NCBI RefSeq assembly: GCF_000026945.1
Contig: NC_012860.1
Location: 1,364,001-1,428,000 of the forward strand
DNA length: 64,000 nucleotides
Direction of reading: 5' to 3'
From: Candida dubliniensis CD36
Taxonomy: Eukaryota > Ascomycota > Pichiomycetes > Serinales > Debaryomycetaceae
Shown here: positions 6,524-17,919 of the stretch, one piece after another
How positions within the stretch are numbered: position 1 is the stretch's first letter
How the letters are laid out: each line of letters opens with the position of its first letter
Program-made: the position numbers and the translations under genes
The notes under the pieces: model-generated
What the model was told of the DNA's origin: nothing
Seen by the model: the letters and a program-made list of their open reading frames with translations, nothing else
The model's database searches: none

Positions 6524-9139
6524 ATGTCAAAATCAAATCAACATTCAATTACAACTAGTCCTATAGTCATATCTTCTCCAACATTATCTGGTCCCATTAG
6601 ATCTTTACCTATATCAAAACCTCAACAATCATCAACAATTTTATCAAATTTACGTGGTAATGTCATTTTAGTCACTAAATATAATTTTATTGCTGAAGGA
6701 GAAAATGAATTATCAGTTAATAAAGGAGATTTAGTTAAATTAATTGATCGATTAGGTAATGGTTGGATATTAGTCAAATATATTGATCGTGTACAACCTC
6801 CAGGATTAATTCCTGCTTCATATGTTGATATTGCCGTTAATGATCAAATTAATCCCATAACTTTGACTTGGTTACAAAAACTTGATGATACACTAGAAGA
6901 AGAAGAAGAAAAAGAAGAAGAAAAAGAAAATCAATCTCAATCTCAATCTCAATCAACTAATCATAATCATGCTATTAATAATATTATTGATGAATTAAAT
7001 TATTTAGATTTACAATTTAATAAAGTTGAATCGAAATTTGTCACCATAAATAATCGTCCTTATCCTATTCAAGCTTCAATATCAAATTTCTTATTATTTA
7101 ATGGAAGAATATGGTATCGATTAGATATTGAATATAGTGATAAATCAAAATCATATATTTGTCGTTATTATCAAGATTTTTATAATTTACATATTAAATT
7201 ATTGGATTTATATGAAATTTTATCTCAAAATAATATTGGCAATTCTAATTCTAGTGGAACCATTGGTGGACCCACTGGTGGTGGTGGTGGTGATAATAAT
7301 AATATCAAATTACCTAAATTACCTGAACCAATACCAACTCAAAATAAAAATGATGATGAAAATAAAGAAATTTCAATGTTATTAAAAAGATGTAATGAAT
7401 TGAATATTTATATTAATAAATTAATATTAAATAAATATTATCAAACTTCTGATCAATTAAGAGATTGGTTAGAAATTAAAAAAGATTTACCAGGATTTAT
7501 TATTAATTATTCTAATAATAATGAAGATAATATTAATGAAATATCTAATGATGAAATTAATGAAAAAATTTTACCTGGTTCAATTAATATTGTTAAAAAT
7601 TATTATGAAAAATTGAATGAATTAGAAGAAATTGAAAAACAAAAACAAAAACAAATTCAAGTTCAAGAATCAAAAGATACTAAATTACCTCAAAGATCTC
7701 ATTCAAAAAATATTTATAATAATTATCAACAAGCTACTCATGCTTTGGTAGGTCATAGTAATAGTATGAAACATACAATGGTTATGTCTAAAACTGGAAC
7801 AATAAGACATGTACCGATTGGGTCTGGGGCTAGGTCTGGGTCTGTTTCTGGGTCTGGGTCTGTTTCTGGGTCTAGGTCAGGATCCGTTTCTGTTTCTGTT
7901 TCTCGATCCGGGTCTAGGATTTCTGATGGTAAATCATCACATTCACATCCATCTCAATCTGATAGATTTTCTTCATCGAAAAGTAGTAATACCCCAATGA
8001 CTAGAAATAATACCACTATAATTACAAAATCACATCCTCATCATAATCATCATCATCATCAACAACATCAAACTAAAAATAATAACACTGGTAGTACTGG
8101 TAGTACTGGTAGTAATGGATCAGATAATTTTTCTTCAACTTCACCAACATCTTTAACTTCAAATTCAACTTCAACAACAACAACAACAACAGCTTCATCT
8201 TCATCTTCATCACCAACTCCAACACCAACTCCAACTCCAACTCTTTCAATAACGAAAAAAAATAGTGAGACACCAGTTGATAATAATTATATACTATCAT
8301 CACCAGAAATGTCAAGAATTACCAGTACCACCACAAGTAATGGTATTTTTCAATCAAATCCAGGGTCACCATTAATAGGACCATCAGCGGCACCATCAGC
8401 AGGACCACCAGTAATACCCTTGTCAACACTGTCACCACTGTCACCAATATTTAATTCACAATCACCAAAATTAATCAATAATAATTTGAATTCTTCTAAA
8501 ATGGATTATAGTCCTAAACCTGGATTTACTCCAAGAATTATCAAACCACCAACTCCAACAATTTCATCAACAAATAAATTTCAACCAACAACTACATCTA
8601 TTACTAGTACAACAACAAATTTTTCAACTTCATCACCAAAAATGTCACCAATGGGAGGTCATTTTAATGCTAATTTTCCTTCTTATTCTCAAACCAATGA
8701 TCTTAACAATAATAACAACACCAATAATATCAACAACAATATCAACAACACCAACAATAAGGCAAAACATCAAAGAACATTTTCTAATCAATTTATTCGA
8801 TGTAAAATAATTGATCAAAATAATGATATTATTGTTATTAAATTAAATAAAGGAGAATTAAATCTGATTAATGATTTAAAAAATTGTCTTAAATCTAAAA
8901 TTAATATAAATTTTCCACCTCCTTCAAAAAATATGTTAAATCCAGAATTATTTAATAGTAATAGTAATGGTCACGATGGCCATGATGTTGATGGCCATGA
9001 TGTTGATGTTGATGAAAAATTTAATCAAATATTTATTAAATTACCAAATTTAAATAATTTTGAAAATATTGATATGATAAAATTCAATTTTTATGAATTT
9101 TTAAGATTTAATGATAAAATGTATCTTAAAATTGAATGA
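6524..9139 (+). CDS. Bem1-like scaffold protein 1 (SH3-PX-PB1)
   Basis: Predicted 871-residue cortical scaffold. The start is the ATG at 6524 (MSKSNQHS); the frame is open 54 nt further upstream but only from a TTG. Residues 45-105 form an SH3 domain ending in the Bem1-type GLIPASYV. Residues about 180-318 form a PX domain with RYYQDFYNL, which I recall as nearly identical to the phosphoinositide-binding stretch of Bem1, plus LPKLPEPIP. The C-terminus (about 755-871) has a PB1-like pattern ending in KMYLKIE. The middle is disordered: Ser/Gly, His, Asn and Thr tracts. Bem1 links Cdc42, its exchange factor Cdc24 and PAK kinases at growth sites, using its PB1 to bind Cdc24. Classical BEM1 has two SH3 domains and is shorter, so this is probably a paralog and not BEM1 itself. 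CTG codons at 8429 and 8438 lie in Ser/Thr/Pro-rich sequence and should be read as Ser. Confidence 0.85.
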   Translation: MSKSNQHSITTSPIVISSPTLSGPIRSLPISKPQQSSTILSNLRGNVILVTKYNFIAEGENELSVNKGDLVKLIDRLGNGWILVKYIDRVQPPGLIPASYVDIAVNDQINPITLTWLQKLDDTLEEEEEKEEEKENQSQSQSQSTNHNHAINNIIDELNYLDLQFNKVESKFVTINNRPYPIQASISNFLLFNGRIWYRLDIEYSDKSKSYICRYYQDFYNLHIKLLDLYEILSQNNIGNSNSSGTIGGPTGGGGGDNNNIKLPKLPEPIPTQNKNDDENKEISMLLKRCNELNIYINKLILNKYYQTSDQLRDWLEIKKDLPGFIINYSNNNEDNINEISNDEINEKILPGSINIVKNYYEKLNELEEIEKQKQKQIQVQESKDTKLPQRSHSKNIYNNYQQATHALVGHSNSMKHTMVMSKTGTIRHVPIGSGARSGSVSGSGSVSGSRSGSVSVSVSRSGSRISDGKSSHSHPSQSDRFSSSKSSNTPMTRNNTTIITKSHPHHNHHHHQQHQTKNNNTGSTGSTGSNGSDNFSSTSPTSLTSNSTSTTTTTTASSSSSSPTPTPTPTPTLSITKKNSETPVDNNYILSSPEMSRITSTTTSNGIFQSNPGSPLIGPSAAPSAGPPVIPLSTLSPLSPIFNSQSPKLINNNLNSSKMDYSPKPGFTPRIIKPPTPTISSTNKFQPTTTSITSTTTNFSTSSPKMSPMGGHFNANFPSYSQTNDLNNNNNTNNINNNINNTNNKAKHQRTFSNQFIRCKIIDQNNDIIVIKLNKGELNLINDLKNCLKSKININFPPPSKNMLNPELFNSNSNGHDGHDVDGHDVDVDEKFNQIFIKLPNLNNFENIDMIKFNFYEFLRFNDKMYLKIE

Positions 9140-9530
9140 TTGAATGATTGAATGAATGAATGAATTAAACAAAAAGAAGTTATGGTGGTGATGGTGGTGA
9201 TGATGGTTGTCCTATATATATGATTATATTCCATTTATTATTTTGTATTAGTTCTTTTTTTTTGTTTTTTTTTTTTACATTTCCATTTGATTAATTGATT
9301 AATTGATTGTTTGATTGTTTGATTGTTTGATTGTTTGATTATTTGTTTTTTTATTTCATTTCATTTCCTTCGTCTGTGTGTGTTTTGTTTTTTTGTTTTT
9401 GTTTTTTATTTTTCCATTTTATATCGTTTAAAATCCTATAGTGGTGGTTTTTTTTTATTATTTTGGTGGAGTTATATTCAATTATATAATAGTATATTTA
9501 TGTATCAATGTGTATCTTTATTAACAACAA

Positions 9531-16016: not shown

Positions 16017-16054
<38 letters not shown>

Positions 16055-17919
16055 ATAACAATATCAGACCAATATCGATCAATACCACTAGTACTACCAT
16101 TAGCAATAATAATGGAAATCTTGTTAGTCCAATCACCAAAACTAGACCAGTTATATCTCCTACTACTACTACTGCTAATAATAATAATAATCGAATTTTT
16201 AGATTACCTGATCAATATATTAATAATTCAACATATATTGATCAACTTAGTAAGAAAATTCGTGATAATACTAATACTACTACTATTAAATCAAAAGATA
16301 ATAAAGATCTTGATAATTTATCTACTATTGTTCATTCAGAAAGTAATAAATCATTATTTAGTTATACATCAATAATTAATACTTATAATAATCATAATGT
16401 TGGTGTTGATGATATCACTAATGTTGAATTATCACAATCATCACAATCATCACAATCATCATCATCATTATTATTAGAAACAAATAATGATAATAATATT
16501 GATAGTAATAATGATAATCAAATTCCAGATACTTCAATTAATGAAATCCAAAAAAACAACAACAATGACGATGTCAATGTCAACGACAATAAGTTATTAG
16601 ATAATTTTTCAAATTTATTATTATTATCATCATCATCACCTTCTTCTTCATCACCACCTTCTTCTTCTTCATCTTTATTACCAAAGATTCATTCTAATAA
16701 GCAACAACATCAAAAAATTAATTCTCTTTTACAATTGGATTGTCATAGATTAGATAATCATCAACGAATAAATTCAATTCAAAGTGAACCTGAAGAAAGT
16801 ATATTTGATCATAATCCACATCAGCATCAACATTCACATCAACATCAACATCATTCTGATCATTATTCTTGTTATTATTATTATTATCGTCAAAATCACA
16901 ATCATAATCGATATTGTAGTAGTTGTACTACAGCAACTAATCATAGTTCAAAAATGAATTCACCTTCAACTACTCCATTAACAATATATTCTCAAGATCA
17001 AGATGAATCAGGAGGAGGAAAAGAAGGAGGAAAAGAAGGAATAGCAATATTTGAAAAATTCCCTACTCAAAACATCAACATTACAATAGATAAACCATTA
17101 CCTAAATTACCATCAACTCCAACTTTAACAAAAACAACAACAACAAAAACAAAAACAACAAACACAAAAGTCAAATCTATGATAATAAATTCATCAAATA
17201 TTATTCCTGTTACTGAACAATCTGCGAAAACTTATTCTTATAATAATGGTAATAATAATAATGATAATAATAACAATAATAATTCATTAGTTTTATCTTC
17301 ATCACCATCACTTTCTCCATCCAATAATTCATTATCAGGTTCAACTTCAACTTCAACTTCAACTTCAGCTTTAGCTTTTTCTACCACTTCTTCTCCATCT
17401 TCTCCTCATGGTTCATTTTTCGAAGTATCTATGAATAATATAATTCATGAATTAGATGAATTTAAATTCGCCTTAGATTCTAAACCACCACCACCATCAC
17501 CACTATCACCACCAATAATTGATAATACCATTACCACCACCACCACCAAGTCAGATAAAATTCAAATTGAAGTTTATTTAAATAAAATAGATATAAATTC
17601 TATTGAATCAAATGATATAATTAAATTTCAATTATTTAAATATGATATATTATCAATTGATTATTTAAAAAAAATTATTAGTTTTAAAATGTATAATGAT
17701 TATGAATTATTAAATCATTTTAATTTATTTTTATTATTATTATCATCAACATCAACAGAACTCAAAGACAATACTATTACTGCTACTACAATTGATGATA
17801 ATGATATTAAATTGGTTTTACTTGATGATGATGATTATTTAATAAATTATATTAATAATGAATCAATTATTAAATTGAATTTAATTAGATCAAGAGCTAA
17901 AAGAGAAACTATTTCTTAA
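14503..17919 (+). CDS. Bem1-like scaffold protein 2 (SH3-PX-PB1, diverged)
   Basis: Predicted 1138-residue paralog of the gene at 6524, starting at MSLSSPTK. The N-terminus has a TPK repeat (about 79-90) and a poly-Thr run. SH3 spans about 175-246, with an Asp/Asn-rich insertion in its first loop and the same LIPASYVDIALNDP-type exit as paralog 1. A PX-like domain spans about 306-442, but RYYQDFY of paralog 1 has become GKFYNDFY, losing the arginine expected to help bind phosphoinositides. PB1-like sequence covers about 1019-1138, with an acidic DDDDYLINYINNE patch resembling the OPCA motif. The middle is disordered, with poly-Gln (16021-16053), poly-Asn, poly-Ser and a His/Tyr-rich segment. 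The peptide PLPKLPST occurs twice and is a plausible SH3 ligand. The shared architecture argues for duplication; function is inferred from Bem1. Confidence 0.82.

What the first reader, a model, noticed from the sequence alone, without database searches (positions are those of the whole stretch)
6524..17919. Two neighbouring, diverged Bem1-like scaffolds with a single SH3 each
Both proteins have the order SH3, PX, PB1-like, and the SH3 exits (GLIPASYVDIA) are nearly identical, so they arose by duplication. Classical Bem1 has two SH3 domains and is about half as long as paralog 2. Bem1 organises Cdc42 polarity, so extra scaffolds beside the normal BEM1 could tune budding, hyphal growth or mating. 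I know of no described system built on such a tandem pair.
Basis: partly seen in the sequence, partly recalled or inferred. Interest (0 to 1): 0.8.

Follow-up and report, generated by a model that had tools for sequence, protein, structure and literature searches.

The report
Tandem single-SH3 Bem1-type scaffold genes
Two neighbouring yeast genes encode slimmed-down, diverged relatives of the cell-polarity scaffold Bem1; the pair is old and appears to have stayed side by side in several related yeasts, one extra Bem1 copy was already on a published list, and the function of both is untested.

Summary
Both ORFs encode SH3, PX and a C-terminal PB1-type fold, each with one SH3. In the second protein no Pfam model fires, but 39 of 41 members of its family alignment match SH3_1 and 40 of 41 PX, and the AlphaFold model shows all three folds.

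The duplication is old. Trees split first-gene (alpha) and second-gene (beta) families before the sampled CTG-clade species diverged. Eight alpha/gamma-beta pairs share a contig length, two with consecutive locus tags, so the tandem looks conserved. Single-SH3 relatives also occur in Pachysolen and Wickerhamomyces.

The layout matches the Bem1 fragment SH3b-PX-PB1 that complements bem1-delta in S. cerevisiae (PMC7409549, passages). I read alpha as a parallel Cdc24-to-PxxP-ligand scaffold. Beta has Lys for the PX Arg and, in this lineage, Glu for the PB1 Lys, which should weaken Cdc24 binding.

One extra Bem1 paralog in C. albicans, CaBem1-2, was listed in 2015 (PMC4466140); the passages I read give it no function. 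My searches found no mention of a second copy or of the tandem.

The parts
6524..9139 (+). Gene 1 (W1, alpha family): 871-aa single-SH3 Bem1-type scaffold
6662..6832 (+). W1 SH3 domain (residues 47-103), ligand-pocket Tyr/Trp/Pro/Tyr kept
6839..6874 (+). W1 conserved post-SH3 segment N-D-x3-N-P-x4-W-L (residues 106-117), aligned with P and W of the Bem1 SH3b extension; low model confidence at 106-112
7046..7513 (+). W1 PX domain (about residues 175-330); Arg214 of RYYQDF at 7163-7165
8786..9136 (+). W1 C-terminal PB1-like domain (residues 755-871, with a low-confidence loop at 797-829); beta-1 Lys761 at 8804-8806
9140..14502 (.). 5.36-kb spacer between the two genes; no ORF of 100 aa or more lies wholly inside it
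14503..17919 (+). Gene 2 (W2, beta family): 1138-aa single-SH3 Bem1-type scaffold
15022..15240 (+). W2 SH3 domain (residues 174-246) with an acidic insertion in the RT loop
15241..15276 (+). W2 post-SH3 segment N-D-P-L-E-P-x4-W-L (residues 247-258)
15448..15849 (+). W2 PX domain (about residues 316-449); Lys355 in place of Arg at 15565-15567
17548..17895 (+). W2 C-terminal PB1-type domain (residues 1016-1131); Glu1023 in place of the beta-1 Lys at 17569-17571

Best explanation
The two genes are an old, retained tandem pair of Bem1-type scaffolds that lack the first SH3 of Bem1. Shown: each encodes one SH3, a PX domain and a C-terminal PB1-type fold, joined by long low-confidence linkers; W1's SH3-PX part is most like Bem1's second SH3 and PX; alpha and beta split before the sampled CTG-clade yeasts diverged; a normal two-SH3 BEM1 exists elsewhere in the genome. 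Inferred: alpha (gene 1) works as a second Bem1. Its lysine-type PB1 holds the exchange factor Cdc24, its PX docks on membrane, and its SH3 holds a PxxP ligand such as a PAK kinase, so that Cdc42-GTP made by Cdc24 is delivered to a chosen effector. Beta (gene 2) is the specialised copy. Its PX carries Lys where alpha and Bem1 carry Arg, and in W2 and its closest relative P0050 the PB1 has lost the Lys that Cdc24 binding needs in Bem1, so here it probably anchors SH3 ligands at another membrane or to another partner rather than recruiting Cdc24.
For: Domains and folds. W1's best other own-genome match is BEM1's SH3b-PX stretch (C5:306814-307434, E 6e-12); W2's only other own-genome match is W1 (E 1e-11). 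Two-SH3 BEM1 elsewhere. Age: beta is a clade at 100/97* and alpha at 97/93* in the careful tree of 52 of 117 rows; 99* and 97* in the quick tree of all 117. Tandem retention: 8 alpha/gamma-beta pairs with equal contig length, two with consecutive locus tags. SH3 pocket: Trp 59 of 59 alpha and 45 of 46 beta (1 gap); Pro the same; Tyr 59 of 59 and 44 of 46 (1 Phe, 1 gap). PX position: Arg 58 of 59 alpha (1 Lys), Lys 45 of 46 beta (1 Leu) and 8 of 8 gamma, Arg in 3 of 3 outside rows and BEM1. PB1 Lys: 51 of 59 alpha, 39 of 46 beta (4 gaps), 3 of 3 outside rows, BEM1; Glu in W2 and P0050. Published: ScBem1 145-551 (SH3b-CI, PX, PB1) complements bem1-delta, K482A impairs Cdc24 binding, SH3b holds Cla4, Ste20 and Boi1/2 (PMC7409549, passages). 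Partners in this genome: a DH/PH/PB1 protein read as Cdc24 with an acidic PB1 motif and two PBD proteins read as the PAKs; these names are my reading.
Against: No binding, localisation or mutant data. PB1 is not recognised by Pfam in W1 or W2, nor by profile searches of solved chains; directly against own BEM1's PB1 the profiles give only 0.2 (alpha) and 3.4 (beta). The part of the Bem1 extension that carries ScBem1 N253 (Cdc42 binding) has no counterpart after the Trp in W1 or W2 (by eye), so Cdc42 binding may be lost. 8 of 59 alpha rows lack the PB1 Lys (7 another residue, 1 gap), among them C. auris P0039; in gamma it is Lys in 4 of 8, Asn in 3. For W2 the PX ties with sorting nexins. W1 did not recover W2 in the own-genome search, though W2 recovered W1. 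Contig sharing is inferred from equal lengths read by eye, since contig names are not given. The only Bem1 in the trees sits on a long branch.
Confidence: 0.6

Rival explanations
1. The two proteins are not polarity scaffolds any more but act in endosomal or vesicle traffic: the PX selects an endosomal lipid, the SH3 holds an endocytic PxxP ligand, and the PB1 makes homo-oligomers or binds the CBS-PB1 protein.
Confidence: 0.2
2. Beta in the line of W2 and P0050 is decaying: relaxed constraint explains the Pfam-silent SH3 and PX, the Lys-to-Glu change and the repeat in the RT loop.
For: W2-P0050 core identity 78% against 92% for W1-P0001; long branch to W2 and P0050 (0.91); RT-loop repeat absent from P0050.
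Against: An intact 1138-aa frame, a 950-aa relative P0050 that stands for 69 sequences, SH3 Trp, Pro and Tyr kept, and confident folds for the three domains.
Confidence: 0.15
3. The single-SH3 line is not a recent duplicate of Bem1 but an old sister scaffold lost in S. cerevisiae; the tandem arose inside it. This concerns origin and is compatible with the best explanation.
For: Single-SH3 members in Pachysolen (P0049), Wickerhamomyces (P0056) and an unnamed source (P0046), with a weak PB1 match below cut-off in P0046 and P0056; A. gossypii also has a Bem1-2 (PMC4466140).
Against: Only one Bem1 was in the trees, on a long branch, so the age of the Bem1 split cannot be read. Whether AgBem1-2 has one SH3 was not seen.
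Confidence: 0.4

Closest known systems
Bem1 (S. cerevisiae) and Scd2 (S. pombe) polarity scaffolds
   Same: SH3b-like SH3, PX and C-terminal PB1-type fold in the same order; ligand pocket residues; PB1 beta-1 Lys in alpha
   Different: First SH3 absent; long linkers; the Cdc42-binding extension only partly present; beta has Lys in the PX motif and, in W2 and P0050, Glu for the PB1 Lys
CaBem1-2 and AgBem1-2, the extra Bem1 paralogs listed by Verschueren et al. 2015 (PMC4466140)
   Same: Very probably CaBem1-2 is the C. albicans form of gene 1 (alpha), the copy that Pfam sees; I could not read the accession table, so this is inferred
   Different: The passages I read name one extra copy per species, no architecture, no tandem and no beta copy
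p40phox-type PX-SH3-PB1 organisers
   Different: Domain order differs (PX first in p40phox; the order is partly from PMC7051960, and partly recalled)

Membership tests
Bem1 family (two-SH3 polarity scaffold) | Two N-terminal SH3 domains (SH3a and SH3b) | tested here: not met
   One SH3 in W1 and one in W2 (by relatives); own BEM1 has two
Bem1 family (two-SH3 polarity scaffold) | PX domain most like Bem1 PX | tested here: inconclusive
Bem1 family (two-SH3 polarity scaffold) | C-terminal PB1 with the basic Lys that Cdc24 binding needs (ScBem1 K482) | tested here: inconclusive
   PB1-type fold matched for W2, similar element order for W1; Lys in W1, Glu in W2; Pfam PB1 silent in both
Bem1 family (two-SH3 polarity scaffold) | SH3b extension (CI) that binds Cdc42-GTP | tested here: inconclusive
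   P and W of the extension align; the segment with ScBem1 N253 has no counterpart (by eye)
Bem1 family (two-SH3 polarity scaffold) | Rescue of bem1-delta or binding to Cdc24 and PAKs | not testable with these tools
   Needs bench work
Single-SH3 Bem1-type family (alpha, beta, gamma; this report) | SH3 followed by a conserved segment ending in Trp, then PX | tested here: met
   Trp of the segment in 59 of 59 alpha, 44 of 46 beta (1 Leu, 1 gap) and 8 of 8 gamma rows; SH3 and PX by Pfam in 42 of 42 alpha rows scanned and in 39 and 40 of 41 beta rows scanned, W2 being a miss
CaBem1-2 of Verschueren et al. 2015 | Identity of the listed gene with alpha | not tested
   The table with accessions is a supplement, which I could not read

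The most novel reading that the evidence does not exclude
The tandem pair encodes two halves of one device: alpha keeps a basic, lysine-type PB1, while beta in the line of W2 and P0050 has swapped that Lys for Glu and gained acidic runs, so that beta's PB1 may have turned into the acidic partner that pairs head-to-tail with alpha's PB1 or competes with Cdc24 for it. Two linked genes would then form a tunable brake and accelerator on Cdc24-Cdc42 signalling beside Bem1. Against it: W2 itself holds no strict D-x-D/E-x-D/E motif, though P0050 and P0051 do.
Probability: 0.1. Interest if true: 0.75.

Novelty: new variant of a known kind. Interest (0 to 1): 0.52.

Why it matters
Bem1 is the textbook hub that feeds Cdc42 to its effectors. 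If CTG-clade yeasts have kept two further, simpler hubs side by side since before the sampled species diverged, then models of polarity in Candida that use one scaffold are incomplete, and the alpha copy is a natural version of the minimal Bem1 fragment that was shown to work in engineered S. cerevisiae. The clade-wide PX Arg/Lys split and the lineage-specific PB1 charge change are directly testable predictions. The question left open by Verschueren et al. in 2015, whether the extra Bem1 copies come from a common yeast ancestor, gets partial evidence: single-SH3 members outside the CTG clade favour an old origin.

Tried and rejected
Recent local duplication: rejected, because alpha and beta families are separate clades across many yeasts. 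One of these being the only BEM1: rejected. Missing domains in protein 2: rejected by family members and model, though Pfam is silent on protein 2 itself. Full conservation of the Cdc42-binding extension: I first took the N-P-W pattern for the whole element; the numbering, worked out by hand with W192 as anchor, puts ScBem1 N253 (PMC7409549) in a later segment that is missing here, so I withdrew that claim. PB1 by sequence against solved chains: nothing relevant; Pfam on 12 alpha PB1 pieces: nothing relevant. In one search no row starts in the W1 PB1 range, which says nothing against that fold. The strict acidic PB1 motif is a poor guide here: W1 also has one match, inside its low-confidence loop.

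Pfam membership counts used 42 of 59 alpha rows and 41 of 46 beta rows (alignments A2 and A3; P0054, P0077, P0111, P0113 and P0114 left out of beta). The tree is a quick one; the careful tree used 52 of 117 rows chosen by hand. Grouping of gamma: joins alpha at 89/56 (unstarred); gamma with beta is not rejected (p-AU 0.261) and alpha with beta against the rest is not rejected (p-AU 0.185). Beta was not found for C. parapsilosis, C. orthopsilosis, L. elongisporus or C. viswanathii; these searches depend on shared five-residue words and the first two scored only the candidates sharing most words, so absence is not shown. Synteny could not be searched directly; no fungal genome collection was at hand. 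Claim that the tandem and a second extra copy are not in print: literature searches, seen as listings, plus passages of PMC6220992 (which names only BEM1 itself); no bioRxiv and few subscription papers are held there.
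Full report
What is there. The window lies at C2:1364001-1428000 of a 14,618,422-base genome in 8 contigs. The reading frames were taken with table 12 (CTG as Ser). Size, contig number and the nearest relatives suggest Candida dubliniensis, with P0001 and P0050 from C. albicans; those names are recalled and come from no call. Gene 1 (W1) is 6524-9139 and gene 2 (W2) 14503-17919, both on the plus strand, 5.36 kb apart.

The normal BEM1. One ORF on C5 (632 aa) has two SH3 and a PX. W1's best other match in its genome is the SH3b-PX part of that gene; W2's only other match is W1.

Relatives and age. W1 found 49 proteins, W2 found 4, and a masked profile of five diverged relatives found 105. 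A quick tree of 117 rows (114 relatives, W1, W2, BEM1) gives alpha 59 rows, beta 46, a small group gamma 8, and three single-SH3 proteins outside (P0046; P0049 Pachysolen; P0056 Wickerhamomyces). In a careful tree of 52 of these rows beta is 100/97*, alpha 97/93*, and gamma joins alpha at 89/56, unstarred. Named species with both alpha and beta include Priceomyces carsonii, Scheffersomyces coipomensis, C. maltosa and C. auris.

Tandem retention. The protein search gives no gene neighbourhood, only the length of the longest contig. Among 114 relatives, eight pairs share an exact length (read by eye), each pairing beta with alpha or gamma: P0034/P0076, P0020/P0069, P0025/P0062, P0096/P0093 (alpha with beta), P0102/P0088, P0074/P0070, P0084/P0078, P0071/P0091 (gamma with beta). 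Two pairs have consecutive locus tags (PRCAT00000686001/685001; PSN45_002709/002708), and two contigs are only 9,963 and 13,219 bases long. I read this as a conserved tandem, with gamma standing at the alpha place in a Yamadazyma-like line. For the other species the data cannot tell.

What differs between the copies. The SH3 pocket is kept in both. In the PX motif R-Y-Y-x-D-F the first residue is Arg in 58 of 59 alpha rows, in BEM1 and in 3 of 3 outside rows, but Lys in 45 of 46 beta and 8 of 8 gamma rows. The PB1 beta-1 Lys is Lys in 51 of 59 alpha and 39 of 46 beta rows (4 gaps), and Glu in W2 and P0050. The RT-loop Glu is kept in 58 of 59 alpha (1 gap) and 41 of 46 beta rows (2 gaps); W2 has His. 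W2 carries a short acidic insertion in the RT loop, encoded by a six-base repeat, that P0050 lacks. In this pair of sister sequences beta has changed more: core identity 78% for W2-P0050 against 92% for W1-P0001. A strict acidic motif D-x-D/E-x-D/E (definition from PMC7051960, passages) is present in the acidic runs of P0050 and P0051 but not in W2; W1 has one match, in its low-confidence loop.

How it most likely works. Published passages on S. cerevisiae Bem1 (PMC7409549): SH3b holds Cla4, Ste20 and Boi1/2, its extension binds Cdc42-GTP, PB1 binds Cdc24, K482A impairs that, and the fragment 145-551, which is SH3b-extension-PX-PB1, complements bem1-delta. Alpha has this layout, so I infer a parallel scaffold that links Cdc24 to PxxP ligands on membrane. 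This genome's two Pfam PB1 hits are a DH/PH/PB1 protein that I read as Cdc24, with an acidic motif, and a CBS-PB1 protein with a similar motif; two PBD proteins are read as the PAKs. Beta, with its PX change and its lost PB1 Lys here, should bind Cdc24 poorly and do something more specialised. Cdc42 binding by either is open, because the later part of the Bem1 extension is missing.

What was known. Verschueren et al. 2015 (PMC4466140; outline, sections 5 and 6 and passages seen) list one additional Bem1 paralog in C. albicans (CaBem1-2) and one in A. gossypii, and, of duplicated genes discussed there, say they could not decide whether they come from a common yeast ancestor. Two PB1 surveys (PMC2121648 and PMC7051960, passages) name Bem1, Cdc24, NoxR and CBS-PB1 (Mug70) families in fungi; the passages I saw do not mention these genes. 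Searches for the tandem or for a second extra copy found nothing in their listings.

Verdict. Real, old, and a variant of a known scaffold family; partly catalogued. The tandem retention and the paired changes at binding sites are the new part. Function is inferred.

Noticed in passing
G000:C2:1348124-1370523 (L023 4124-10000, L022, window 1-6523): About 22.4 kb upstream of gene 1 holds four ORFs of 100 aa or more, the largest 135 aa at window 967-1374. At its far end a divergent 904-aa gene has a C-terminal Zn2Cys6 cluster and looks like UME6, the hyphal regulator; that name is recalled. UME6 of C. albicans is reported to have a promoter within 7 kb upstream and a 3-kb 5' leader (PMC4374957, passages).
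   Followed up: partly
window 15060-15102: A six-base repeat lies inside the coding part of the SH3 RT loop of gene 2; the insertion it encodes is absent from relative P0050, so this ligand-facing loop may vary in length between strains.
   Followed up: partly
window 3087-3194 (+): Rfam match to H/ACA snoRNA snR5 (53.4 bits, gathering 45) in the ORF-poor upstream region.
   Followed up: no
   Followed up: partly
P0036-P0039: In the C. auris/haemuli group the alpha copy has Gln or Glu at the PB1 Lys position, so this residue was lost there in alpha.
   Followed up: no
P0002, P0003, P0006: Public records name alpha copies of C. viswanathii and C. maltosa 'Bud emergence protein 1', which can be mistaken for the true BEM1.
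   Followed up: no
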